Source of the DNA: Candidatus Bathyarchaeota archaeon
Lineage (GTDB): Archaea; Thermoproteota; Bathyarchaeia; Bathyarchaeales; Bathycorpusculaceae
NCBI GenBank assembly: GCA_022865455.1
Contig: JALHSY010000200.1
Span: 1-55,649, forward strand
Reading direction: 5' to 3'
Length of the DNA stretch: 55,649 nucleotides
Positions 2,920 to 29,314 of the stretch are shown in pieces. Every line of letters starts with the position of its first letter. Within the stretch, counting starts at the first letter, position 1. The position numbers were made by a program, and so were the translations under genes. The notes below the pieces were generated by a model. That model was not told the origin of the DNA. It saw only the letters and a program-made list of their open reading frames with translations, and ran no database searches.

Positions 2920-2934
2920 AGCGATGGGAAGACA

Positions 2935-3536
2935 ATGAACGCTCTGGGCATTGCCTTCAGCGCAAGGAGAAAAGGCAACTGTCTAGACTGCGTTGAGTAC
3001 GTCCTGACGAAGCTTAGGGATCATGGATTCGAAACCAGCATTGTCAACGCTTATGAGTACAGCATTACGCCTTGCAGCCACTGCAACTACGAATGTTTTG
3101 CACGCAGCTTAAGAGGAGCAGACGAGAAATGCCCCATCCATGACGATGCCCCCAGATCTTCACCAAAATGAAGGAAGCAGACATCATCGTACTCACAGTT
3201 CCAACATACAGTGGAAAAGCCTCAGGCCTATACTGCGCCTTCACAGAAAGAGCCCAAGGCATAATTGAGAGCTACGAAGAATTCAAAGACAAAATTCTGA
3301 ACAAAATCATTGCACTGATTGTCATAGGAAATGTTCCAGCCGGCGGCGATCTTGCCTACCACGCCGTGATCTTAGACCATCGCGATAGCAAGTACCCGCC
3401 TCCATCAGCGTTGCTTCAGTCGACTGAGTACGGTCAAAGTTCCGTGCAAGGGACGCTGATCGAAGAAGAAAAGGTCAGAGACAGATTGGGCGGGCTTGTG
3501 AATCTGATACTCAGAGACTGGAAAAGCAAGCATTAA
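2935..3536 (+). pseudogene. Flavodoxin-fold NAD(P)H/FMN reductase, frameshifted
   Basis: Two overlapping frames together make one roughly 200-residue flavodoxin-fold reductase. The first (2935-3171) begins LGIAFSARRKGNCLDCVEYV, an FMN-binding P-loop-like start, and includes CSHCNYECF and KCPIHDDAP. It then runs out of frame into a stop. The second supplies QIFTKMKEADIIVLTVPTYS, which is the expected continuation. The break is at a run of five C (3149-3153), and one extra C would restore the frame. Iron-sulfur flavoproteins and NADPH-dependent FMN reductases share this architecture. It may be a real decayed gene or an assembly error. The C-terminal half has only an internal ATG at 3168. Confidence 0.75.
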
Positions 3537-4184: not shown

Positions 4185-7100
4185 TCACGCAAAGTCTGTC
4201 AGACTGATTTGTTTCGGCTTCTTGCTCTCAAACAGGGCGTTGATTTCGTCTTTTATCAGCGAAATCCTCTGAGCATAGTAGTTGGGCAGATGATACTTTT
4301 CAACAAGCTGCTGCGCTACCTCCAAGTATTTTTCGATACCGCCTCGATAAACAGTCAACGTTAGCTGTCCACCGCATACTGGGCACTTGCCGCGGAGGGG
4401 CACACGACGGAAACGTTTGCTGCATGATTTGCACCTGAAACCCTGAGTTGAGAAAGCCCGCAAGTTTCCAGTGATGTCCCGCATAAAATGTGTGGTCAAG
4501 ACTTTCAAAGCAACCTTTCTAGCGTCCACAGCCTCAATCTTTTCCGCCAGCTCAAGTTGACCATTCATCTTCTCAACCATGGTCTTGAGGCGCTTGTAGG
4601 CGCTCTCAGCATTTCCACTATTGATGTCCGAGACCGGCGTGGTAAAGTTGAAACCCTCAAACTGTGCTTCAGTTCCAAGCCTGCAGCCAACAAGATCTAT
4701 CAGCGGGCTAACCTGTCTGGACTCCAGCCCTTCCCACGTCTTCTCATAGAACTCAACAGGGTAAGCGCTGGCAACATCAAAATCGTGCGCCTGCCGCTGC
4801 ACTTCTTTCGTGTTAACGACAGGTATCAAGAGCAACGGTGCATCCATTATCCCGCCAATCTGCGCCGGAAGGTACTCCCGAGAGAAATTAATCAGGGTAT
4901 CCAACGCAAGCATCAACGTATCCTCGTCACCGTCACAATCTCGCCGCTTAGCCGAATGCCAAACCGGATGCGCATAACACAGGCTTAGATTTGTAAACCC
5001 AATTATTCTGCCCAAAATGCCAGCGCATGTGTGGGGGGCTAGGCCAACAATCAAATGCCCAACAAGGTCGTCTATCCGCTTTACGCCGTAATACGGCGGA
5101 AGCCCATACACCTTGGTCAAGAGCTCATCCATGAAGCTTGCCACTTGTATTAAGTACTCTGCACTTTTCAGGGGAATGACGACGTCTTGAAGCTTCAGCT
5201 CACATATCTGCCTATCATCCGCTAAAGGCGTGCCATCCACAGCATAGACATAGCCAAGCTGCTTCAGCTTCTCAATCGAAACCCCGATTTCACAAGGTCT
5301 AAAATGGGTCAAAGGAGCGTTTGTAGCGTCAAAACGGATCGTCCCATCCTTATAGACAGACAGGTCATGCTTTGCACGCAAAACGCCCTTCTCAAAGATC
5401 TCCGGCGTCTTCGTCTGATTCGTTAAACCTTTGACACCTTTCAGGACCTTAGGCATGGAAACGCCCAAACGGCTGCTTGCGTTCTCGATGGCTTCTCTGA
5501 AATTGACAAGCTGCTTTTGGTAAGCGTTACCAGGAATCTTGCAGACTGGGCACACGTCTTCCTTCAGGCTCTTGCCGCACCTTGGGCAAGTCTTCTCCAA
5601 AACCGTTTCAGAACCGCAGGAGGGACACCTTATGCTGAGAGTTGAAGTCTTGCAGTTCGGACATTTACGTTTAACAACTTCCACGAAAGTCGACTCCTTC
5701 TTTGCCGCCTCCACCATGTCCCTGTGAGAGCCTCCCGCCAAACCCACTGGGAAAAGGACATGCACAAGCGGCTTCATCTCCCGCCTCTTGGCTTTTTCGG
5801 GTCTGCCCATCCGCGCACCCACAAACGTGGGAGCTTTCTCTCGGACTTGCACGCCTGAAAGCATGCAGACGGCATCCAGAGGCGACTTGGCTGAGTCAAG
5901 ATTCATATCATAAGTGTGCCCATGACCGAGGCAAAAGGCAAAGGCACAGGCAACTTCACCTTCGATCACGATCTTGCCGTCTAAGACTTTGTGAGGCAGG
6001 CACAATAATTCCAGATTCCGCTTTGTGGCTGTTTCATTCTCTCCTACAATCTTGCGTACGAAACCATTCTCCTCTTGCGTTGCAGACTTGAGCAGCCATT
6101 TTCTTAACAGCTTGATCTCTTCGGTTGACGCAAGATTTGGCCAGAAGAAGGTGAAGGCGGGGTGAAGGGGAACACGCAACGTCGATGACAGAGCTATGGA
6201 TTCTTCAATGCTTGGCTTCTCACTGAATGGTTTTTCCAACAGGCGCTTCAGTCTTTCGGCAGAAATCTTGACATTATCTGCTGTTTCTTCAAGATTCCCA
6301 CTAAACCTTTCTGCAAGAGCCTTCCGCAGGTTCTCAACCCACCATTCTTCAACATATGCAGAAGGTGGCAGGCTCTTGCTATTGTACAAGAAATCGCCAA
6401 AGCAAATCAAAATGTCGCCCAAGAACAGAATCCTTTCAATTGTGTCCTTTATTGTATCGAAAGTCTCCATGGAAACGCGGGTGACCGAGCCATCCTTCAA
6501 TCTGACGACTGGCGGCTCTATAGTGTCAACTGGCACAACAATCCCGCCTTTCCCAGGAAGCTCGAAGCGAAGCTGAGTACCGCCGGCCAGAAAGCCTTGA
6601 AGCACAAACATCGTAACTGGGTGAATCCCAACCGCGGATAAGCCAGTGTTTCTGGCTCTACCATACCTCAGGCGGAAGCCGCCGCGCCTCGACGGGAATG
6701 AAAAGATTGGACGGCCAGCGATGACGTCATCCATAAAACCTGCAGATTTCTTCTCAGACTTCTTGCGAAACTCCGCGAGCCAGTCCCATCCTTGAATGCC
6801 AAGCTTGTCTACAATTGCCAAGACTTTGGCTGATCGCCCGATGATGCCGTCATTCACGACTCTGAGAGCTCCACCTCGCACGCGGTTCGTCTCCACTCGA
6901 GGAAGGTTTCGGAAAGATGAAACCTCAACTGGGTCAGACTCGGGCCCTGTGACTTCGACCGGAAGCCATTGGAGCGCTTTTCTCAGTTCTTCGTCTGAAA
7001 CGTGATATTGGAACCGCGTCACAGACCGCTGATAAACCCGCAACTCTTCAATGAAACGTGATATTTCCTCTTCAGTAGGCTTGTAGCGATCAAGCCCCAG

Positions 7101-7589
7101 CAGCCGGCGCACGAAATCGCCAACTACCAATGTTAAAGCTTGATCTGTTCCGCCAGCTGAGCGCATGGGCCCTGCGAAATATATGGAAAGGTAACGCGTT
7201 CGATCATGATTGGTCTTAATCTTGACTTGAGCAATGCCCTGTAAAGGTGCCGCTGTCAGACCCTCTGTAAGGATGGCAAGTGCCGTCCGTATTGCTTGTT
7301 CGGCTGCAGGCTCCGGCTCCATGTGCCCGAATTTTCCGTAGACGATTTCTTCAGCGATTTTGAAGGCTAATTCCTCTCTGGGAAGCTTTGTGCTTAGCTC
7401 TCTTATGCTCAGGGCGACGCCCTTTGGTCCTACAAGGCCTTCCACAAGGTCTGCTAGGTCTTTTGCTATCTTGCATTCAGGTTTGAGAGACGGGTCCACC
7501 CCTTTCTCTCGAGCCTTCTCGCTCAAGCTATACAGCTGGGCGAGTCTGCTTTCTAGTCCTTCCACATATTGTCGATATGTTTCGCTCAT
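4185..7589 (-). CDS. polC: DNA polymerase D large (catalytic) subunit DP2
   Basis: Catalytic subunit of archaeal replicative polymerase D, about 1134 residues, the usual length and with no intein. The catalytic-site motif RRDCDGDEDTLML, near residue 885, contains the paired aspartates of the double-psi beta-barrel active site. Family landmarks include YFAGPMRSAGGTDQA and VRGGALRVVNDG near the N-terminus, two Zn clusters (CPNCKTSTLSIRCPSCG and CPRCG..CPVC), and a C-terminal zinc ribbon (CKSCSKRF..CPVCGG). An upstream TTG at 7601 is possible, and the ATG at 7589 was taken. It is the last gene of a minus operon with elf1, ggps and two small ORFs. The small subunit lies 11 kb away. Confidence 0.96.
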   Translation of the reverse strand: MSETYRQYVEGLESRLAQLYSLSEKAREKGVDPSLKPECKIAKDLADLVEGLVGPKGVALSIRELSTKLPREELAFKIAEEIVYGKFGHMEPEPAAEQAIRTALAILTEGLTAAPLQGIAQVKIKTNHDRTRYLSIYFAGPMRSAGGTDQALTLVVGDFVRRLLGLDRYKPTEEEISRFIEELRVYQRSVTRFQYHVSDEELRKALQWLPVEVTGPESDPVEVSSFRNLPRVETNRVRGGALRVVNDGIIGRSAKVLAIVDKLGIQGWDWLAEFRKKSEKKSAGFMDDVIAGRPIFSFPSRRGGFRLRYGRARNTGLSAVGIHPVTMFVLQGFLAGGTQLRFELPGKGGIVVPVDTIEPPVVRLKDGSVTRVSMETFDTIKDTIERILFLGDILICFGDFLYNSKSLPPSAYVEEWWVENLRKALAERFSGNLEETADNVKISAERLKRLLEKPFSEKPSIEESIALSSTLRVPLHPAFTFFWPNLASTEEIKLLRKWLLKSATQEENGFVRKIVGENETATKRNLELLCLPHKVLDGKIVIEGEVACAFAFCLGHGHTYDMNLDSAKSPLDAVCMLSGVQVREKAPTFVGARMGRPEKAKRREMKPLVHVLFPVGLAGGSHRDMVEAAKKESTFVEVVKRKCPNCKTSTLSIRCPSCGSETVLEKTCPRCGKSLKEDVCPVCKIPGNAYQKQLVNFREAIENASSRLGVSMPKVLKGVKGLTNQTKTPEIFEKGVLRAKHDLSVYKDGTIRFDATNAPLTHFRPCEIGVSIEKLKQLGYVYAVDGTPLADDRQICELKLQDVVIPLKSAEYLIQVASFMDELLTKVYGLPPYYGVKRIDDLVGHLIVGLAPHTCAGILGRIIGFTNLSLCYAHPVWHSAKRRDCDGDEDTLMLALDTLINFSREYLPAQIGGIMDAPLLLIPVVNTKEVQRQAHDFDVASAYPVEFYEKTWEGLESRQVSPLIDLVGCRLGTEAQFEGFNFTTPVSDINSGNAESAYKRLKTMVEKMNGQLELAEKIEAVDARKVALKVLTTHFMRDITGNLRAFSTQGFRCKSCSKRFRRVPLRGKCPVCGGQLTLTVYRGGIEKYLEVAQQLVEKYHLPNYYAQRISLIKDEINALFESKKPKQISLTDFA

Positions 7590-7695
7590 TTCACTGTTCA
7601 AATTCTCTGCCTTTCTCCCGAAGGCGCTAGTGTTTGTGTTAGTTTATTTCTGTTTTCTGACATGGAAAAATCAAAAACTGATAGTACAGTGCCGT

Positions 7696-12950: not shown

Positions 12951-13664
12951 ATGCCTGACCCATTGCTTGTTATTACAAGTGTCTTGCTTGTGGTGACCCT
13001 AGGCGCGGCGGTCGAGTACTACAGGCAACTCCGCAAAGCCCAAAGGGAGTATGAGAAGGCGAGGGGTGCCGTTGAAGATGTCGTTTTGAGTTTCAACAGG
13101 CAACTCAAGCGTGAGACTGAGAAGGTCGAGCTTATCGGATACAAGTTGGAGTCAAATTCTTCGAAGAGCGACAGGGCGTTGAACAAGAGTGAAGGGGCTG
13201 AAAAGCAGTTAGCCGATTTAGAGCCCAAGATCGCTGCAATGTTGCAAGACAAGGAGAAGCTGCTGGTGAGGCTTGAGGAGGTCGACAAGAAGGTGGCTGA
13301 TGCTGTTGCGTCACAAGGAGCGTTGACCGCCAAGATCTCAAACATGGAGGAGCAAGTACGGCAAGTCCCTATGGCACCTGAATTGAACATCGGTGCAGTC
13401 ATTCCGATAAAAAGGGAGAAAGCGTTGGCACAATTGACAGAAACGGAGTTATCCGCACTGGAGTTTCTTGCCCAAGAGGGCCCAAAGACGGCACCAGAGA
13501 TCAAGGACAAGATCAGACTCAGCCGAGAGCATACTGCAAGATTGATGAAGAAGCTCTACGAAGAAGGCTATTTGGAAAGGGACACGGGCAAGATTCCGTT
13601 CAAATACTGCGTCAAGAAAGAAATGGAGAAGCTCTTGAAGAAGACAGAAAACCAAGCTGCCTGA
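12951..13664 (+). CDS. Membrane-anchored coiled-coil winged-helix protein
   Basis: Three parts are visible in the 237 residues. A single N-terminal membrane helix (LLVITSVLLVVTLGAAVEYY) is followed by a long heptad-rich coiled coil (about 25-135, rich in K/E/L) and a C-terminal MarR/ArsR-like winged helix (LTETELSALEFLAQEGPKTA, KIRLSREHTARLMKKLYEEG, YLERDTGKIPFKYCVKKE). Such proteins place a DNA-binding domain at the membrane surface. The function is unknown, and chromosome tethering or signal-responsive transcription are options. Its promoter carries several palindromes that could be its own binding sites. It is convergent with the HerA-like gene, 1 bp apart. Confidence 0.65.
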   Translation: MPDPLLVITSVLLVVTLGAAVEYYRQLRKAQREYEKARGAVEDVVLSFNRQLKRETEKVELIGYKLESNSSKSDRALNKSEGAEKQLADLEPKIAAMLQDKEKLLVRLEEVDKKVADAVASQGALTAKISNMEEQVRQVPMAPELNIGAVIPIKREKALAQLTETELSALEFLAQEGPKTAPEIKDKIRLSREHTARLMKKLYEEGYLERDTGKIPFKYCVKKEMEKLLKKTENQAA

Positions 13665-13665
13665 T

Positions 13666-15191
13666 TCATTGCAGAGAAACTGACTTTTGAGCGCTCAGCT
13701 GTTTGAGGCGCTTGTCCATGTCTGAGAGCTTCCCTGATTCTTGCAGACCATACTCTGCTTTCCCCCTCGTCTCCAAGTATTCTGGGTAGTGTGTGACCTT
13801 TATTGGCACGGCAAACCTGATTTTGGGCTCAGATATTAGCAGAGCCTCGCCAACGTCGAGCATCTTTATCTCCGTGCCACTGTATTCCAGATAGGGCGTG
13901 TTTTCTGTCAGGTACGCTCTATCCTTACGAAGCTCGGTTTTCATGATGACTTTCGTCCACAGTTCTGCGAGAACGTCAAAGTTTATCCTTGATGGCCTCG
14001 GTGTCACAGCGTTGAGCCCAACGCGGTATTTGCGATATGTTAGAGCGATGTCAGAGAATATTGTTCGCGGTTTGTTGGGGTCAAGAAATTCATGTGCTTC
14101 TTCCAGAGTTGTGAGGAGGGTGGGGAGTTTCTGCCACTCTTCGTAGTTTTCTTCCCACAAGCGTTTGTAGTGTTCAGCCACGGTGGATGCTAGAGGCAGA
14201 CAATCCTGGTTTGGTCGTCTGAACGCAGACCAGAAATGTCGATTAAGCAGGTTATCCCTTGGCAGACGTTTTGCGTAATGCTGTCGACAAAGGTATAGCC
14301 AGAAGCGGGGAAAAGGTCGTGCGGTAATGAAGACAATTTTTGCATGAGCACCTCGACGACAGACTTGTGTGCTCGCACTGCCACGTTTCCTTCAGCTCTG
14401 TAGGTTTCAAGCGAACTCTCTATCCATTGTTTGCCAAGCTTTCTGTACAGTGCCCAAGCAAGCCTTCTTTGAGGGGGTTGAGTGTCTGCGAAAAGAGTTC
14501 CAAGCTTCTCTGGGGTTATCGTGTGCAGGCCCACGGCCATTTTCTTATCCTTGGCTGAGTAGTATCTGACCTTGCTGTGAAACAGAGCGTGGTCCTTCAA
14601 GCCCTTTTGCGGTTTCATTCCTTTTCCATCCAGCAGTTGCCCGGCAAAATCAAAGAGTATGGTGACAGTCTCAGGGCTGCGATCTATTATTTGGGCATTC
14701 AGCACTAATTCAGTGTTCGTTTTTCCCGAGCCTGTCATGCCAAACATGCCCATCATGAGAGGTATGGCTTCAACACTTATGCCGGCAGATCCCAGCAGTT
14801 GCTCTCCAGAGAGGAGGCGCCCTAACTCAAGCTCCCCTGAGAGGTTGAGGACCGAGCAATCTTCTTCGCTGGTGCTGTACACTCGGTCCTTGTAGTTCGG
14901 GTTGAAGGTTGGAGAACGCGCTTTGGCGGCTCTTTTCTCCAAGAACAGTATAGCCTCGACGCTTCTGTAGGCTGAGTATGGACCGTATGCTTCCCTCCCT
15001 TCTGCTTCCCGCAGCTGCTCGATGATGTCAAGGGTAGAGCTACTCTCGGCGTTCACAACTCTCGCGTAGAAGCTTCTTTCACCTGAGTCTATGCGGACAA
15101 TTTGCCCAAAAGAAAGGTTGACTTCCTTGTTGAGAAAGAACGCCACTGAATCTCCTTTCGTTCCGCGCACAAACCCTATTGATTCAGACAT
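13666..15191 (-). pseudogene. herA: HerA-like hexameric DNA helicase/translocase, frameshifted
   Basis: The N-terminal part (15191-14190, ~333 residues) has a HAS-barrel start (SIGFVRGTKGDSVAF), Walker A GMFGMTGSGKTN and LFDFAGQLLDG. It ends DDQTRIVCL at a TAG. The remaining ~170 residues, frame-shifted, continue with TVAEHYKRLWEENY, the Walker B-like LLTTLEEAHEFL, then TYRKYRVGLNAVTPRPSRI and a HerA C-terminus. One extra base near 14190-14193 would join them. Walker A and B fall in different frames, so neither half alone can be an ATPase. HerA with NurA resects DNA ends. Its start overlaps the NurA-like stop by 8 bp, showing one ancestral operon. Confidence 0.8.
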
Positions 15192-16209
15192 AATCGCCAA
15201 CCATCTCTCGTTTGAAGGGATATTTCACGCCGTGCAGTTCATCTGCAAAGCTGGACGAGCGTTCCTCCTCCCGCAGTATACCCATTATTCCAGCATCTAC
15301 TAGTGTTTTTTCCACTTGGTCAAGGTACTGAAGTAATTTGGCGTCGGCTGGTGCAGAGAAATCATGAGCAAGCCACAAGGGGATGGGATACCCCAAGCAC
15401 CGGGGGTCTTCCGCCACTGAGGTCAAAGGAGCAAGCAACGCGCCTATTTGCTGGTTTGTCAGGTACCCATAATGTCACAACGGAAAACACGTGAGCTTCC
15501 TTCGCACAATTTGACGAGTGAGATATCCCCGTACAGACTCATGTCTTTGTCAGCTTCTCTGATTGGGTGATAAACCCAGATGCCGTGAGAAGAGAGCATA
15601 CTCGTAGTAGCTATGAAGTCCCTTCCTTTTTCGTCATGAAGTGACGGCGAATTCTTACTGATAGCCAAGAGGTTGACTCCGTCTTTTTCACATCTCTCGT
15701 AGAGCGAGACGCGGAACTTTCTCTCTCCGCCGAAATATCCGCCCCCATCGAGCAGGAGGTAGTTACTACGAGGAGAAGTATGCTCGTAGTAAAGTGGGCT
15801 GTTCCTGTCTTGAAGAAGACCTAACGCCATCTGGCTTTCCAGCTCAATTCTCACATCTGTCAGGAAATTACTACGAGTACGTGCGTCCCCAACCACCGTA
15901 CACAATCTTTCCAGGTGCCCCCAGTCAACCTCGCGCTCTTTAACGAAGGCGTAGGCGGCACGCATCAAGTAGACCCCCCCAATTGTCGGCCCTCTTAAGC
16001 GTCCTCGTCGAGCAGTCAACAGCAACGAAAACCCCGCAGAAACTACTGCCCTTTTCCAATGGCTTTATCCTGAATATTTCAGGTTTGACGGATATTGCCG
16101 GCTCTTCTCTCACTTCAACTGCGCCTGGAACCCTTCCTTTGTCTACGTAGAGTTTGAGTTTCTTCTCCATATCGGTGAAGTCTGCTCCTATTTCGTCGCT
16201 TATGTGCAC
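15184..16209 (-). pseudogene. nurA: NurA-like nuclease, two frameshifts
   Basis: Three frames together give a ~340-residue NurA-domain 5'-3' nuclease. Segment one starts at the GTG at 16209 and contains the catalytic-site VFVAVDCSTRTLKRADNW. It breaks at a seven-base C run (15974-15980, G on the coding strand). Segment two continues VYLMRAAYAFVKEREVDW, YLLLDGGGYFGGE, LLAISKNS and CDIMG, and breaks at 15466-15468. Segment three is YLTNQQIGALLAPLTS, then GYPIPLWLAHDFSAP. One G too many and one G too few explain the two breaks. Both lie in short homopolymers, so decay and assembly error are both possible. Confidence 0.75.
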
Positions 16210-16329: not shown

Positions 16330-16761
16330 CTACGGCATATGCTGTTTGGGCATGACTTGCGGTACGTTTGGAGCCAACTTGTATTTTAGGCTGTTAGAGG
16401 CCCCTGTCTTGAGTAGGTGTCCTCTGTTCACCATTCTAGCCAAATAGGTTGCCGCGGTGCTGAGGCTAAGAGGTTCCTTAAACTCCTGCTCGTAAACCGC
16501 TTGGACTTCCCGCGAAGAGAACCAAACCAGCGGGAAATGTTCCCGGGCAGTCATGCGGACCTTGTCGTATTTGGAGAGACCGCTCTTTGCCTCTTCAGGG
16601 TTAGCCGCTGCACTGTTGCCTCCAGGCGGTGCTCCCCCCAAAAGTTCCACTAAGTCCAAGAGGTGTAAAGCCTTCTCACGCGTTATCTGCCCTTCGAAGG
16701 CCACAGTATATCGATTGCCTTCACTATCGAACAGTTCAATACGCATTCTTCTCGCAGGCAT
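16330..16761 (-). CDS. Hypothetical protein with C-terminal winged helix
   Basis: This 143-residue protein has an N-terminal beta-rich half (MRIELFDSEGNRYTVAFEGQ, then a helix ITREKALHLLDLVELL), a low-complexity glycine/alanine linker (GGAPPGGNSAAANPEEA), and a C-terminal region resembling a winged helix (FSSREVQAVYEQEFKEPLSL, STAATYLARMVNRGHLLK). It lies upstream of the nurA-herA genes on the same strand, 120 bp away, and opens away from the origin region. Starts at 16761 and 16746 are both plausible, the latter following GCGAGAAGA. No named family is recognised. A regulatory role is inference. Confidence 0.55.
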   Translation of the reverse strand: MPARRMRIELFDSEGNRYTVAFEGQITREKALHLLDLVELLGGAPPGGNSAAANPEEAKSGLSKYDKVRMTAREHFPLVWFSSREVQAVYEQEFKEPLSLSTAATYLARMVNRGHLLKTGASNSLKYKLAPNVPQVMPKQHMP

Positions 16762-17571: not shown

Positions 17572-18813
17572 ATGGGGAGTCCTAGTATACTTGATGAAGT
17601 GTTCGATAGATTCGTGAGTAACGCGAGGGTGTTCAAGGACAGAGAGGTTCTTAGGCATGATTACCTTCCGGACAGGTTGCCTCACCGAGAGGAACAGATC
17701 AGGCTGCTGGGAGAGACGGTCGCCCCTGCATTGAAAGGTGCCAGAAGCTCTAACATATTCATCTATGGAAAAACCGGAACCGGGAAGACGGCTGTCGCAA
17801 AGTACGTTTTAAGCTACCTTGAAGTTAAAGCTAAACAGTTTAACGCGCCCGTAAGGTTCTGCTACGTAAACTGCCAAATGGCAGCGTCAGAATATCGTGT
17901 TTTTGCTGGCTTGTGCCAAAGTGTAGGCGTGGCGGTTCCGTTCACAGGCCTGTCGGTCGGTGAAGTCTTCGACAGGCTTCGGACAGGTTTGGACGCTGCC
18001 AAAATAATATTCATAGTTGTTCTGGACGAAGTAGATTCTCTCATAAAGGCACGCGGCGACGGTCTACTCTACGAACTGACAAGGATAAACGAGACATTAA
18101 CGAAGAGCAAGGTTGCCCTCATCGGTATTTCAAACGACCTGCGGCTCAAAGAGTTTCTCGACCCCCGCGTTCTCAGCTCGCTTAGTGAAGAAGAAATCGT
18201 TTTCAGGCCCTATGACGCTAGTGAACTGAAGAGCATTTTGCTTGAACGTGCACGGTCAGCGTTTTGCGACAATGCCCTGTCCGATTGTGCATTAAGCCTT
18301 TGCGCTGCTCTGGCTGCTGCCGAGCACGGAGATGCACGAAGGGCCTTGGATCTCCTGCGCGTGGCGGGTGAGGTTGCCGAGCGGAAGGGCGCGACCATCG
18401 TGGTGGAAGAGCATGTGCGAGACGCGGAGAAACACATTGAACACGACCGCGTTATTGAGGCTCTCCAGAACCTGACCTTACACTCAAAACTTGTCGTCTT
18501 GAGCGTTTACCACCTGAACAGGGCACATGTCTATAGCGCCATCACAGGTGAGATTTTCGACGTTTACAATGAACTGTGCGGCGAGTTGGGGGTCACACCC
18601 TTGACGCAGCGCCGCCTGAGTACTTTGGTGAATGAGCTTGATTCGATGGGTTTGTTGAATGCGAAGGTCGTGAGCATGGGAAGGTATGGACGGACGAAAA
18701 AAATCATGTTGGAGCTGTCCCGCACTCTTGTTCGAGATGTCTTCGGTGGCGATGCACGGCTTGGGCGCTTGGTCGGCCATGAGCCCAAATGTCTGCGAAA
18801 ACACGCAAGCTGA
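17572..18813 (+). CDS. cdc6: Orc1/Cdc6 replication initiator
   Basis: AAA+ initiator of 413 residues that binds origin recognition boxes and helps load MCM. Walker A is GKTGTGKT (66-73), Walker B is IVVLDEVDSL (around 148-157), sensor 1 is ALIGISNDL, and sensor 2 lies in HGDARRALDLLRVAGEVAE. A C-terminal winged helix occupies roughly residues 300-400. GGGGAG six bases before the ATG is the ribosome-binding site. The upstream spacer has ORB-like sites, arguing that this is the cognate initiator of an active origin. It converges on the PolD small-subunit gene, 60 bp apart. Confidence 0.94.
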   Translation: MGSPSILDEVFDRFVSNARVFKDREVLRHDYLPDRLPHREEQIRLLGETVAPALKGARSSNIFIYGKTGTGKTAVAKYVLSYLEVKAKQFNAPVRFCYVNCQMAASEYRVFAGLCQSVGVAVPFTGLSVGEVFDRLRTGLDAAKIIFIVVLDEVDSLIKARGDGLLYELTRINETLTKSKVALIGISNDLRLKEFLDPRVLSSLSEEEIVFRPYDASELKSILLERARSAFCDNALSDCALSLCAALAAAEHGDARRALDLLRVAGEVAERKGATIVVEEHVRDAEKHIEHDRVIEALQNLTLHSKLVVLSVYHLNRAHVYSAITGEIFDVYNELCGELGVTPLTQRRLSTLVNELDSMGLLNAKVVSMGRYGRTKKIMLELSRTLVRDVFGGDARLGRLVGHEPKCLRKHAS

Positions 18814-18873: not shown

Positions 18874-20436
18874 CTAGCTGAACGGAACGACCGTGACTTC
18901 TAACGTTTCAAGATTCACGACTGGAACTTTCCCAGGAGTCGGCATAAACCCGTTTCTGCGCATATAATCAGTCTGCTCTTGCCAGCATCCAGAGTTTACG
19001 ACCAACACGCCGCGGTAGTTGCCGTACTCTAATGCGTGCACATGACCAGCGTGGAAAATGTCTGGGACACGCTCTATCACAAGCGAGTCTCTGTTCTCAG
19101 GTGACAATGGAGTCTTCCCGCCGTACAGTGGTGCCAAATGCCGACCCTGTAATAGCAGCCTCATTGCCTTTTCAGGGTGGCTGTAGGTCATGTCAGGAAC
19201 TGTTGAGATGATGTCATCTAAGCTGCGGCCGTGAAACATTAGCACTTCAACGCCGTGAAGGCTGAGGAAGCAGGGGTCTCCGAGGGAATGGATCTTCCTT
19301 GATTCCTGTAACGTTTCGAGGAAGACGCTCGATATTGGTGGTTGAGGCAGGGCCTTTCGTGGGGCATCGTGGTTTCCTGGGGTGATTACAACCTCTACAT
19401 AATCAGGTATCTGTTCAAGATATCTTGCTGCCAGTCTGTACTGCTTGTGGACATCTTTAACGGCCAGCTCTTTCACTTGGTTAGGGTAAACTCCTATTCC
19501 GTCAACTATGTCTCCTGCTATGAGAACGTATTTCACCCTGCTTGCTATTTCTTTCATCTCTTCATTCCCGTATTTGCCGTTAAGCCAGAGTATGAAACGG
19601 TTAAACGCCTCTCGCGTGAATTTTGTGCTGCCAACATGCATGTCTGAAGTGAGCACAGCATAAACTGGCTCAGAGGCCTTGTGCTGGGTTCTCTGGGCCA
19701 CATCAGGCAGAATGACGTCTTCCGCTATCAGGAGGCTGGTTCTCGTTTTCACAACGCCCAAACATATAACTTGGTCAGGCAGAAGCGAACGTGCCCTCTT
19801 CTGGACCTCTTGAGGAGCGTTTTGCGGGACAAGAACCGTTGCCGCTGCATACAGATCTTCAACAGTCAAGATTGTCCTTTGTTTTGACTCCCTCTTCTCT
19901 GTTATCATGCCGATTATTTTGAGCCTCGTGTTTGCAGGGGCCTTAAATGCGTCAATTATTGACGCTGCACTTTTCACATCGATTCTCTGCCTTAAGAGCT
20001 TCTCCAGACGCTTGTACCTGTCTCGGAAGTATTCTAAGAAGCCCTCCACCGTCGCCTTTGAATCCAGCTTGGCGCCGGGATCCTCGATTATGTTGATCCT
20101 TGCCTCGACTTCCTTCGAGTACGGACGGAAGGGCTTCTTCGCTTCAGTTATCATCGGCTGTGGTTTAGTCAATTCTTGAGTTGGTTCTTCAGGTGGCTGG
20201 ATGACAATCTCTTTGGCCTGCTCTGGTCCTTTCAGAAGCTGCTCAAGGAACTTTCTGTCTATAAACATTGGTTTGTCTGACAGATCAGCTATCACTCTTA
20301 TCGCCTTGTTCATGACCTCTGTTGGATCTTCTGTTGCGGCTACTGTGCTTAGGAAGTCGAAGGCTTCTTTGTCGAGTTGATATCCTGACGCGATTGTCAG
20401 TTCCACGGCTTTCTGCAGTTTTCCGTTCTCGCTCAT
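18874..20436 (-). CDS. polB: DNA polymerase D small subunit DP1 (3'-5' exonuclease)
   Basis: This 520-residue proofreading subunit of PolD combines an N-terminal helical region, a disordered P/E/K-rich linker (80-105), an OB fold (about 170-245) and a calcineurin-like phosphoesterase domain. All metal-binding motifs are intact: SDMHVGS (264-270), AGDIVDG (307-313), GNHD (354-357), FHGRS (401-405) and GHVH (near 465). DP1 therefore looks catalytically active. Its ATG overlaps the stop of the DUF429-like gene by 4 bp. DP1 next to orc1/cdc6 is a recurrent archaeal arrangement. Confidence 0.95.
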   Translation of the reverse strand: MSENGKLQKAVELTIASGYQLDKEAFDFLSTVAATEDPTEVMNKAIRVIADLSDKPMFIDRKFLEQLLKGPEQAKEIVIQPPEEPTQELTKPQPMITEAKKPFRPYSKEVEARINIIEDPGAKLDSKATVEGFLEYFRDRYKRLEKLLRQRIDVKSAASIIDAFKAPANTRLKIIGMITEKRESKQRTILTVEDLYAAATVLVPQNAPQEVQKRARSLLPDQVICLGVVKTRTSLLIAEDVILPDVAQRTQHKASEPVYAVLTSDMHVGSTKFTREAFNRFILWLNGKYGNEEMKEIASRVKYVLIAGDIVDGIGVYPNQVKELAVKDVHKQYRLAARYLEQIPDYVEVVITPGNHDAPRKALPQPPISSVFLETLQESRKIHSLGDPCFLSLHGVEVLMFHGRSLDDIISTVPDMTYSHPEKAMRLLLQGRHLAPLYGGKTPLSPENRDSLVIERVPDIFHAGHVHALEYGNYRGVLVVNSGCWQEQTDYMRRNGFMPTPGKVPVVNLETLEVTVVPFS

Positions 20437-24219: not shown

Positions 24220-25095
24220 TTAGGAGACCGACATTCGTTTCCTGTTGACATCAGCGAAGGTGGGTTGTTCTTTCAACATCCGTCTTACTAATGAGAAGTC
24301 TTTGTCCTGAGAAAATATCAACCTCGTCGACCACAACACTTGCATAGAGTTTTGGAAGATTACATTGTCAACATTCTTTGTCGTCATCTTATCTGGATAC
24401 CGATGATAATGGAATGGGTCGCAAAAACAAAGTGCAAGTAAAGGGGTCAAAGGATAGAATATTTGAATGCCTTCACAGAGAATACCAAGATTGCCGAGAG
24501 GACTTTTGTCTACAGGGTTGTATCTGGTTACTGGCTGGTCAGAAGTCCAGAAGAGCATTTGAGTTCCATTTTCAATCAGAATCCATTTTGTACCAAGCAT
24601 CATCTCTACGAATTCTCCGAGGTATCTGGACATCATGCCTAACTGCATCTCTTTGGGATACTCCTCTCTTGTGACATCTTCCAACTCTTCTTTCAGTTTA
24701 TCGGACATCTTATATTTTGACAATCTTTCATTAAGTTGCTTGACCAAGTCTCGCAAAGTTTCTCTCCATTCCCTAGTCCTCAGTTCTTGAAGTACGATAA
24801 AAGTCGCTATATTTTTGACTTCATCAAGTTTCAATTCTCTTAAGTCTCGTTCGATAATTAACTTGTTATAGGCTACACTGAAATCGGCTTCGATCTTGGA
24901 GAGAAAATTCTCAACAGATTGTTCACTCGGTTCTGCGTCATAAAAGTGTTTTCCGCAAGCTACATTTTTAGGTGTCGATATGAACTCTTTCAAGGTGGCT
25001 TTATCGAAACAGTGCAAGGTCTTCCCTTTGCCACCGATGGTAAAATTCTTGAGGTAGAATTGAGGAACATAATGTTCTGATTTGCCCCTGACCAT
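24220..25095 (-). CDS. DUF4238 domain protein, island cargo
   Basis: This 291-residue protein begins with the DUF4238 signature SEHYVPQFYLKNFTI and continues with HCFDKATLKEF, NVACGKHFYD and FWTSDQPVTRYNP. The catalytic activity, if any, is unknown. Members occur sporadically in bacteria and archaea and, as I recall, frequently in mobile or defence contexts. The codon usage is A/T-richer than in neighbouring genes, fitting transfer. It is the only gene between the duplicated tRNA-Ser ends. There is no toxin partner, integrase or methylase beside it. The start ATG at 25095 precedes the conserved motif by six residues. Confidence 0.8.
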   Translation of the reverse strand: MVRGKSEHYVPQFYLKNFTIGGKGKTLHCFDKATLKEFISTPKNVACGKHFYDAEPSEQSVENFLSKIEADFSVAYNKLIIERDLRELKLDEVKNIATFIVLQELRTREWRETLRDLVKQLNERLSKYKMSDKLKEELEDVTREEYPKEMQLGMMSRYLGEFVEMMLGTKWILIENGTQMLFWTSDQPVTRYNPVDKSPLGNLGILCEGIQIFYPLTPLLALCFCDPFHYHRYPDKMTTKNVDNVIFQNSMQVLWSTRLIFSQDKDFSLVRRMLKEQPTFADVNRKRMSVS

Positions 25096-25265
25096 AATTA
25101 GGGAGAAGTCATTGTCTAAAATAAATCTATCAGTTGCCGCACTCAGTGTATTGGTGTTTCACCTAGAGAGGCACGCATGTGAAATCAACAGCAGCACGCA
25201 AGAGGAATTCTGACTCTCGCTGCGCATAAAGAGGACAATCTTTTACTGGTAAATTGGTGCTGAAA

Positions 25266-27187: not shown

Positions 27188-28378
27188 ATGCCCCCGCTAG
27201 AAAAGGTGAAGTACAAGCCCATACCTGTCAGAGAACTATTTCTGGAAATGAAGAACCTTTCCGAGTTGATGATTGACCTAGCCTATTCAGCTGCATTGTT
27301 CAATGACAGAGAATTGGCTGAGGACGTTTTGGAACTTGAGAACCGCGTTGACACCTTGGGTTATCAGCTGGAAATGACAATAATGATCGCGGCAAGAGAC
27401 GCTCAAGACGCCGAAGCGCTGACAGGAGTATCCACAGTGGCTTCTGCGGCGGACAAAATTTCAGATGCGGCAGCGGACATAGCTGCAATCGTGACGCAGA
27501 GCATTGGCGTGCACCCGATTGTAACCAAGGTTTTCGAGAGGGTTGAAGAACGTCTGATGCAAGCTAAGGTGGAGAAAGTTTCAAAAATAGTTGGGAAACG
27601 CGTGTCGGACTTGGATCTAGCAGCGAAAATGGGCGTCAACATAATTGCCATTCGCCGGGGCAAGGATTGGATAATAAACCCGAAGAAGACTGCAGAAATA
27701 CAGGCAGGTGACGTGCTGATCACTCGCGGCACAGCTTGGGGGACTGAAGAGTTCAAGGAGCTTGTTGAAGGAAAACCTTCGGAACCGAAGAGCGGGAGGC
27801 CAGAACACGTTAATGAGAAACAGTTTGAGGAGATTGTTGAAAGCTTCGTTGAGCTTAAAGATACTTCTGAGTTGATGATCGACTTAAGTTACTCCTCTCT
27901 ACTGATGAACAGCAAGGAGTTGGCTGATGAAGTGCAAAGACTTGAGGAGTACGTTGACAAGTTGCACACGGATTTTGAGCTGCTGGTTTTGAAGAGCGAG
28001 TTCAAGAAGGAAGAGGCGAAAGGTCTTCTCGGACTGATACGACTGGGCGTTGCAACCGAAAAAATAGCGGACGCAGCGGCGCAGATATCTGAGGTTGTTT
28101 TGAGAGGGATAGAGCCACATCCTGTGCTGAAGCTCACGATAGAGCAGGCTGAAGAAACGGTCACCTACGCGCAGGTAGCTCAGAATTCTTCCTTGGTGAA
28201 CAAGACGTTGCGGGAAGCTCGAATCCCTGAGGAAACTGGCATGTGGGCCCTTGCCATAAAACGCGGAGACAAATGCGTGAGACCCAAGCCCGAGTCCAAG
28301 ATTGAGGCAGGCGACATCATAATTGCCTCGGGCTATGCTGAGGGAGAAGAGAGCCTCAGAAGATTGGCATCTCCATAG
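27188..28378 (+). CDS. PhoU/TrkA-C tandem regulatory protein
   Basis: The 396 residues fold into two copies of one module. Each copy has a PhoU-like helical domain (ELFLEMKNLSELMIDLAYSA; VESFVELKDTSELMIDLSYS) followed by a TrkA-C/RCK_C ligand-binding domain (LAAKMGVNIIAIRRGKDWII..AGDVLI; EETGMWALAIKRGDKCVRPK..AGDIII). Such proteins bind small ligands and gate or assemble with membrane ion transporters. It lies 63 bp downstream of the MgtE gene on the same strand, so a regulatory subunit of that transporter is the natural reading. Confidence 0.82.
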   Translation: MPPLEKVKYKPIPVRELFLEMKNLSELMIDLAYSAALFNDRELAEDVLELENRVDTLGYQLEMTIMIAARDAQDAEALTGVSTVASAADKISDAAADIAAIVTQSIGVHPIVTKVFERVEERLMQAKVEKVSKIVGKRVSDLDLAAKMGVNIIAIRRGKDWIINPKKTAEIQAGDVLITRGTAWGTEEFKELVEGKPSEPKSGRPEHVNEKQFEEIVESFVELKDTSELMIDLSYSSLLMNSKELADEVQRLEEYVDKLHTDFELLVLKSEFKKEEAKGLLGLIRLGVATEKIADAAAQISEVVLRGIEPHPVLKLTIEQAEETVTYAQVAQNSSLVNKTLREARIPEETGMWALAIKRGDKCVRPKPESKIEAGDIIIASGYAEGEESLRRLASP

Positions 28379-28397
28379 CTCGTCGGTCAACGAGTAC

Positions 28398-28865
28398 TTG
28401 GGATACTTATTTTGGATTCATCAATACTATAAACTCGGACTCCGATTCTATGATAACGGAGGGTTATCCATCATAAGAAAGAAGGGATCTAGCGGGGAAA
28501 ATCGAAGTTTGACCTGTCCAAACCCCTCATGCGGCAGAGCTTTCGACAACCCCATAAAGGCTGAGAACCACAGCGCAAAGAAGACTGAACGTTACGAGGC
28601 TTGCCCTTACTGCCTAACTGACATTACGGTCGTGACTACCTCTGAACCCTTTGAAGACAGACCGGAATCAGAGGTAAGCAAAGTGAAAAGTGAACCACAG
28701 ATCATCCAGCATCCTGAAAGAAAGCCGCCTGAGTCTCCTGCGAAAGTGAAGTGCACACACCAATTTGGATACTTGAGCAAACGTGACTCAAAAGAGAAAA
28801 TACCTGAAGAGTGCATGATGTGCGAAAGCATAGTGCAGTGTATGCTTAAGGCCATAACTGGCTAG
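28398..28865 (+). CDS. Cysteine-rich zinc protein, uncertain start
   Basis: The recognisable protein begins around LSIIRKKGSSGENRSLTCPN and contains a zinc-ribbon (CPNPSCGRAF..CPYC), a P/E/K-rich linker, and a C-terminal cysteine cluster (CTHQFGYL..CMMCESIVQC). A good GGAGG lies at about 28459-28464, but the codon at the expected spacing is not ATG/GTG/TTG. The first in-frame canonical start after the previous gene's stop is TTG at 28398, which adds ~24 residues with no homologous look. Start mutation or a non-canonical start are both possible. Function unknown. Confidence 0.55.
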   Translation: MGYLFWIHQYYKLGLRFYDNGGLSIIRKKGSSGENRSLTCPNPSCGRAFDNPIKAENHSAKKTERYEACPYCLTDITVVTTSEPFEDRPESEVSKVKSEPQIIQHPERKPPESPAKVKCTHQFGYLSKRDSKEKIPEECMMCESIVQCMLKAITG

Positions 28866-28939: not shown

Positions 28940-29314
28940 TTGTCTGCGACCTTGCAGAAGAGAGCTCCTGGGGTCATTACGTCAGCCACTCCTCAGACTA
29001 GGGAATTGAACGCTGAGACAGTGACAACTATCGCAACTGGTTTTCTGAAGCGAATTGGACACAAGGGCAGTTTGAAAGCCAAACGAGTGTCGCTGGAAGA
29101 AACTACATATACTGTTGAGGTTGAAATGAAGAAGCTTATGGCCATCGTTCAGGTTGACGCGAAAACGCATGAGATCAAGTCCTATGAGATACAGCCCAAG
29201 GGTGAAGAGGCTTCTTCAGCGTCGTTTTCGCCGAAAATCATCATAGTAATGCTCGGAGTCTCTGCAGCCGTCTACGTTGGACTTTATTTTGCGTTCAAGA
29301 TGTTCGGACTGTAA
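28940..29314 (+). CDS. C-terminally membrane-anchored small protein
   Basis: This 124-residue protein starts with TTG, preceded by AGGAG at suitable spacing. A soluble alpha/beta domain (VTTIATGFLKRIGHKGSLKA, ETTYTVEVEMKKLMAIVQVD, EIKSYEIQPKG) resembles a PepSY-like strand arrangement. It is followed by a linker and one membrane helix (KIIIVMLGVSAAVYVGLYFA). The topology predicts a tail-anchored cytosolic domain. Function and family are unknown. It sits 75 bp after the zinc protein on the same strand and converges on a two-helix membrane protein. Confidence 0.6.
   Translation: MSATLQKRAPGVITSATPQTRELNAETVTTIATGFLKRIGHKGSLKAKRVSLEETTYTVEVEMKKLMAIVQVDAKTHEIKSYEIQPKGEEASSASFSPKIIIVMLGVSAAVYVGLYFAFKMFGL

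What the first reader, a model, noticed from the sequence alone, without database searches (positions are those of the whole stretch)
13666..16209. HerA-NurA operon broken by three single-base indels
NurA is split at a G7 run (15974-15980) and at 15466-15468, and HerA is split at about 14190. Each break is repaired by one base, and the protein remains otherwise well conserved. Three indels in 2.5 kb with no other decay suggest either recent inactivation, possibly a second HerA-NurA copy, or homopolymer assembly error. Phase-variable slippage at G7 is conceivable.
Basis: partly seen in the sequence, partly recalled or inferred. Interest (0 to 1): 0.5.

Follow-up and report, generated by a model that had tools for sequence, protein, structure and literature searches.

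The report
Dying spare copy of DNA-repair genes
In an uncultured archaeon (a Bathyarchaeon), a third, apparently dispensable copy of the DNA-end-trimming gene pair nurA-herA has recently been knocked out by small mutations while two other copies stay whole, and relatives have broken or deleted the same spare copy on their own; it looks like ordinary gene decay rather than a sequencing artefact or a switch.

Summary
In detail: at 13666-16209 (minus strand) nurA and herA are split by three one-base frame changes, at the C7/G7 run 15974-15980, near 15466 and near 14192, without in-frame stops and with 70%/78% identity to an intact relative. The draft genome (Bathyarchaeia) has two other intact nurA-herA pairs, one in a nurA-herA-mre11-rad50 operon, so this is a third paralogue. 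The sister species has the same genes broken by different lesions, stops included; two more genomes of the family and one more named MAG carry others. In the same assemblies the three flanking genes are broken in 1 of 146 copies, this pair in 6-7 of 52. In 23 of 50 genomes the pair is missing between the same two genes. dN/dS between the two broken copies is 0.15-0.17, within the neighbours' range, so the breaks are recent. Best reading: parallel, recent inactivation and loss of an accessory NurA-HerA pair. Assembly error is unlikely but not excluded without reads. Phase variation at G7 is not supported: the other 24 of 25 copies read have 3-5 G. Novelty is modest.

The parts
15940..16209 (-). 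NurA (third paralogue), N-terminal piece
   Evidence: ORF; aligned to G007 NurA up to the first frame change
15974..15980 (-). break 1: +1 frame change in a run of seven C (+ strand)
15459..16025 (-). NurA middle piece
15465..15468 (-). break 2: -1 frame change in NurA
15184..15438 (-). NurA C-terminal piece
14190..15200 (-). HerA N-terminal piece with Walker A; Pfam DUF87 36.6 bits (cut-off 23.2)
14189..14193 (-). break 3: -1 frame change in HerA
13666..14181 (-). HerA C-terminal piece with the LEEAHEF (Walker B-like) stretch
16330..16761 (-). flanking 143-aa conserved protein (no Pfam match), neighbour in filled and empty sites
12951..13664 (+). flanking 237-aa protein with a winged-helix (MarR/TrmB) domain, neighbour on the other side in filled and empty sites
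17572..18813 (+). Orc1/Cdc6-type initiator, intact

Best explanation
The locus is a recently inactivated third NurA-HerA pair (nuclease plus HerA-type DNA translocase). When whole, such a pair most likely trims or degrades DNA ends (inferred from the family). Here the frame changes truncate both proteins: NurA after about residue 74, HerA after about residue 345, before its Walker B-like stretch (shown by sequence; loss of function inferred). Loss is tolerated because two other intact pairs, one in an operon with mre11 and rad50, remain (presence shown; tolerance inferred). The same pair is broken by other mutations in at least four other MAGs and is absent from the same site in 23 of 50 genomes, so this accessory pair is lost again and again in Bathyarchaeia.
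For: Three frame changes confirmed. In the same genome a second pair of 361+484 aa is intact, and a nurA-herA-mre11-rad50 run of 442, 542, 408 and 915 aa is intact (Mre11 and Rad50 named from best NCBIfam matches, below equivalog cut-offs). No second copy of this paralogue. Sister species G001 (92.5% DNA identity over the 20.5-kb stretch with the pair): NurA with a TAG at a place that also lacks three bases against intact relatives (I read the deletion as making the stop), HerA with a -1 change and a TAG, none shared with the window. G023: NurA frame change and internal stop, HerA frame change; G032: three NurA frame changes, HerA whole. L069 (PKYH01000109.1): HerA frame change. Of 35 named loci 4 are broken. 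Control in the same 50 genomes: cdc6 1 of 47, 143-aa 0 of 50, 237-aa 0 of 49 broken, against NurA 4 of 26 and HerA 2 of 26 by the same rule, 3 of 26 with G023; Fisher p 0.0004 (7 of 52) and 0.0015 (6 of 52). Site filled 26, empty 23, other 1 of 50. dN/dS window-G001 0.174 (NurA) and 0.148 (HerA), 15 neighbours 0.036-0.276. NurA fold model: best match Sulfolobus NurA 2ygk, Z 15.9.
Against: No reads, so an assembly origin of the window's own three changes is not formally excluded. Leaving the window's genome out, the excess over flanks is weaker: 5 of 50 against 1 of 143 (p 0.005), by the one rule 4 of 50 (p 0.017), by genome 3 of 25 against 1 of 49 (p 0.11). dN/dS shows no relaxation beyond that of the neighbours, so several lesions in each of two species have come with little missense change. 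Other genes of the two contigs are broken too: FMN reductase in both, further frame breaks in G001. In three genes the lesions of the two species lie close together, which is not explained.
Confidence: 0.8

Rival explanations
1. Assembly or consensus error: the pair is whole in the cell and the three frame changes are mistakes of the draft genome.
For: One break lies in the only G/C run of seven or more in the window; no relaxation of selection is visible; a fourth frame change exists in the same contig; no reads were available.
Against: Only one of the three breaks is in a run of seven or more; the accepted frame changes fall together in one pair among 47 gene places; other genomes have their own lesions, stops among them, in the same pair, while flanking genes in the same genomes are nearly all whole.
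Confidence: 0.13
2. Phase-variable switch: slippage at the G7 run turns NurA on and off.
For: A run of seven G is present in the coding strand.
Against: Of 25 copies in which the site was found (of 26 filled genomes) only the window has more than 5 G; a second NurA change and a HerA change would keep the pair off.
Confidence: 0.02
3. The pieces are still made and work together (split proteins, re-initiation, programmed frameshifting), or stops are read through.
For: dN/dS stays low; HerA's second ORF has a GTG start within about ten bases of the first one's stop; the three in-frame stops seen in G001 (NurA, HerA, FMN reductase) are all TAG.
Against: Break points differ in each species; G001 HerA also has a frame change; TAG ends 4 of 16 ORFs of 200 aa or more on the G001 contig and 11 of 34 in the window, so it looks like a normal stop; no pyrrolysyl-tRNA synthetase reaches its cut-off in 6 of 6 genomes searched, G000, G001, G023 and G032 among them.
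Confidence: 0.05

Closest known systems
nurA-herA paralogue pairs of Pyrobaculum and other Thermoproteales (PMC3396285, passages read)
   Same: Three or more nurA-herA pairs in most genomes of the genus, with parallel phylogenies of the two genes; one pair missing in one species (P. islandicum).
   Different: There the extra pair sits with csm6 beside a CRISPR array; here it sits between two small conserved genes near orc1/cdc6 and the DNA polymerase D subunits, and decay in progress is seen.
NurA-HerA-Mre11-Rad50 end-resection operon of thermophilic archaea
   Same: Nuclease fold (2ygk, Z 15.9) and HerA sequence (4d2i, E 7.3e-16).
   Different: No mre11 or rad50 beside it in the window; the genome has another pair in such an operon.
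Pseudogenes in MAGs of sediment lineages, Bathyarchaeia among them (PMC13288992, passages read)
   Same: 125-527 pseudogenes per high-quality MAG reported across the lineages studied.
   Different: This gene pair is not mentioned in the passages read.

Membership tests
HerA | HerA central ATPase domain above the Pfam cut-off | tested here: met
   window N-piece 36.6 bits, cut-off 23.2; intact relatives 44.1 and 33.2
HerA | Walker A and Walker B motifs in one polypeptide | tested here: not met
   for the window's copy: the motifs, conserved in the 20 intact relatives aligned, fall on two pieces either side of break 3. Motif names recalled. The intact relatives meet it.
HerA (curated DSB-repair equivalogs) | NCBIfam equivalog cut-off | tested here: not met
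   intact G007 copy: CedD 64.8 of 600, HerA_Thermprot 62.3 of 800, helicase_HerA 45.8 of 970 bits
NurA | NurA domain by sequence (Pfam PF09376 cut-off) | tested here: inconclusive
   0 families for the window pieces and for two intact copies; over the cut-off at this locus in G048, G031, G045, G041 and, with neighbours in frame, G011
NurA | NurA (RNase H-like) fold | tested here: met
   model from 25 intact relatives, pLDDT 68.4, pTM 0.72; best match 2ygk NurA Z 15.9, 233 aligned, rmsd 3.5, Foldseek E 1.6e-7
NurA-HerA pair | adjacent nurA and herA on one strand | tested here: met
   26 of 26 genomes with the paralogue have both on one contig and strand
Pseudogene | disabling lesions in otherwise homologous sequence with intact relatives | tested here: met
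Pseudogene | no functional product | not testable with these tools
   needs transcripts, peptides or assays
Phase-variable (contingency) gene | conserved long repeat of variable length at the switch site | tested here: not met
   1 of 25 copies read has more than 5 G

The most novel reading that the evidence does not exclude
The third NurA-HerA pair is not a repair spare but an accessory module in conflict with something in the cell (for example a guard against invading DNA that is costly when unneeded), held at one fixed site in the replication-gene neighbourhood and selected to be lost and regained; parallel knock-outs in sister species are snapshots of that turnover. The HerA tree hints at exchange between families (family f1 is one clade in the flank tree at 100/100 but needs 3 changes in the HerA tree), but the AU test does not reject one clade (p 0.121).
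Probability: 0.2. Interest if true: 0.5.

Novelty: new member of a known kind. Interest (0 to 1): 0.3.

Why it matters
It turns three odd frame changes into a recent evolutionary event: a repair-type gene pair that was under normal selection until recently has been knocked out independently in two sister species, and is missing from the same site in many relatives. HerA-NurA is essential in Sulfolobus islandicus (title of a paper seen only in a reference list), so a lineage with three pairs, one of them shed repeatedly, is a natural test of what the extra pair is for.

Tried and rejected
Second copy of the same paralogue in the genome: none. Phase variation: rejected. TAG read as a residue: no PylS over cut-off in 6 of 6 genomes searched; weaker matches also ring in 13 of 14 control genomes; TAG is an ordinary terminator here. 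While checking this report I found that I had taken the HerA stop of G001 for TAA, whose TAAs lie elsewhere; it is TAG. Defence system by PADLOC: intact HerA copies score at best 41.7 and 41.6 bits on a generic HerA model, the two NurA copies nothing. PDB sequence search with the NurA profile: 0 hits at E 1, hence the fold model. Remnants of the pair in the 23 empty sites and G039: none at E 1e-3. Rows set aside: L084 NurA (run of N); L073 and L094, stops only at reference residues 6 and 8; L065, L076, L088 and L096 are cut by contig ends; 10 of 60 genomes without flank matches. In one search two flagged places were set aside on inspection. Lateral exchange: suggested by 2 of 15 starred splits in conflict on quick trees, not shown. 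Papers, listings only: HerA+NurA+Bathyarchaeota 1 paper, HerA+NurA+archaea+paralog 27 (15 listed), HerA+NurA+pseudogene+archaea 3, HerA+NurA+defense+'gene loss' 2, Bathyarchaeia+pseudogene 4. Passages read: PMC3396285, PMC9905601, PMC13288992.

Full report
The observation. On the minus strand at 13666-16209 the window holds a nurA-herA pair in five pieces. Aligned with frame changes allowed to the intact proteins of a relative (G007), NurA shows a +1 change in the C7/G7 run at 15974-15980 and a -1 change near 15466, HerA a -1 change near 14192, and there are no in-frame stops; identity is 70.4% and 78.1%. The window holds one further broken gene, a small FMN reductase at 2920-3533.

The genome. 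The window is one whole contig (C123) of a 2.01-Mb, 257-contig draft genome, 95% complete. Besides the broken pair the genome has an intact NurA-HerA pair of 361 and 484 aa on C85 and an intact run NurA-HerA-Mre11-Rad50 of 442, 542, 408 and 915 aa on C137. The C85 NurA itself has no Pfam match and is named from its place beside HerA and from relatives that do match. A DNA search and a protein search of the own genome found no other copy of the broken paralogue.

What the pair is. The HerA piece passes Pfam's HerA cut-off, and a profile of 20 intact relatives finds HerA 4d2i at E 7.3e-16; the intact G007 copy does not reach any NCBIfam HerA equivalog cut-off, the best score being for CedD, 64.8 of 600 bits. 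NurA is too divergent for Pfam in the window pieces and in two intact copies tested, but five relatives at this locus pass, and a model built from 25 intact copies (pLDDT 68.4, pTM 0.72) matches NurA structures best (2ygk Z 15.9). Intact copies keep strongly conserved motifs.

Real or artefact. The sister species has both genes broken as well: in NurA a TAG at a place that lacks three bases, in HerA a -1 change and a TAG; none is shared with the window. G023 and G032, of the same family, have further lesions. Among 35 named loci, 4 are broken (L068 = G032, L069, L093 = G001, L096 = G023); L073 and L094 have a stop only at the very start of the alignment, L084's NurA was set aside because of a run of N, and four loci are cut by contig ends. 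In the same 50 genomes cdc6 is broken in 1 of 47, the 143-aa neighbour in 0 of 50 and the 237-aa neighbour in 0 of 49, against NurA 4 of 26 and HerA 2 of 26 by the same rule, or 3 of 26 if G023 is added; Fisher p 0.0004 for 7 of 52 against 1 of 146, 0.0015 for 6 of 52. The window prompted the question; without its genome the figures are 5 of 50 against 1 of 143 (p 0.005), 4 of 50 by the one rule (p 0.017), and by genome 3 of 25 against 1 of 49 (p 0.11). In 47 gene places of the window's genome, 29 of them in the window, the frame changes accepted all lie in this pair. So error is unlikely, though only reads would settle the window's own three sites.

How old. Between window and sister species dN/dS is 0.174 (NurA) and 0.148 (HerA); 15 neighbouring genes range from 0.036 to 0.276. 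Two species pairs with an intact pair give 0.105 and 0.081 (G007-G035) and 0.079 and 0.067 (G005-G034); eight neighbours in G007-G035 give 0.022-0.127, and 6 of these 8 are higher between window and sister species too. The rise is thus not special to the pair. Selection kept the pair until recently in both species, and both lost it separately.

Recoding. The three in-frame stops seen in G001 (NurA, HerA, FMN reductase) are all TAG, but TAG ends 4 of 16 ORFs of 200 aa or more on that contig and 11 of 34 in the window, and no pyrrolysyl-tRNA synthetase reaches its cut-off in 6 of 6 genomes searched. I take TAG as an ordinary stop.

Loss across relatives. Where both flanks are on one contig the pair lies between the 143-aa and the 237-aa gene (22 of 26 filled genomes, 2.6-2.9 kb between the matched parts; in the other four the flanks are not on one stretch). 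Of 60 genomes searched, 50 had flank matches: 26 filled, 23 empty with 10-297 bases between the matched parts, and G039 with 1,299 bases of something else. On a quick tree of cdc6 and the two flanks the filled/empty rows take at least 13 changes, at least 7 forced by starred branches, or 15 losses if the pair was present at the drawn root; the root is not inferred. The HerA tree places some f1 copies with other families, while f1 is one clade in the flank tree, but the AU test does not reject one f1 clade (p 0.121). Repeated loss is well supported, exchange only hinted.

What is known. Extra nurA-herA pairs are known in Pyrobaculum, three or more in most species, one tied to CRISPR and missing in P. 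islandicum (PMC3396285, passages read). Pseudogenes are common in MAGs of sediment lineages, Bathyarchaeia among them (PMC13288992, passages read). My paper searches (listings only) showed none evidently on this locus.

Verdict. A real, recent and parallel inactivation of a third, accessory NurA-HerA pair; function when intact inferred to be DNA-end processing. Modest interest, chiefly as a marker of repeated loss at one site.

Noticed in passing
window 2920-3533 (+): FMN reductase gene with a frame change at about 3150; in the sister species (G001 C160:3541) the same gene has an in-frame TAG within about ten bases of that place; G022, G017 and G020 have it open over 257, 203 and 201 aa, while G013's copy has a TAG inside.
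   Followed up: partly
window 15974-15980, 14192 and about 3150 against G001 C160: In three genes a lesion of the window lies near a different lesion of the sister species: within about 10 bases in NurA and FMN reductase, 47 in HerA. Chance, mutational hot spots or a hidden shared first step are not told apart.
   Followed up: no
G001 C160 NurA 16358, HerA 14534, FMN reductase 3541: All three in-frame stops seen in the sister species are TAG, although TAG is an ordinary terminator there.
   Followed up: partly
G001 C160 about 26274 and 27400-28400 (L099): Further frame breaks in the sister species, e.g. in the counterpart of window 28940-29311.
   Followed up: no
window 4188-7643 and 18874-20436, with 17572-18813: Both DNA polymerase D subunits (DP2 and, by a subunit-B domain, DP1) and an Orc1/Cdc6 lie within about 16 kb, the broken pair between them.
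   Followed up: no
window 24223-25158 (-): DUF4238 protein in a stretch that the sister species lacks at this place; the pairwise match breaks between 24105 and 25266.
   Followed up: no
G031 C42 and C50: Two NurA pieces of different identity (57% and 63%) on two contigs of one genome, perhaps two copies or a strain mixture.
   Followed up: no
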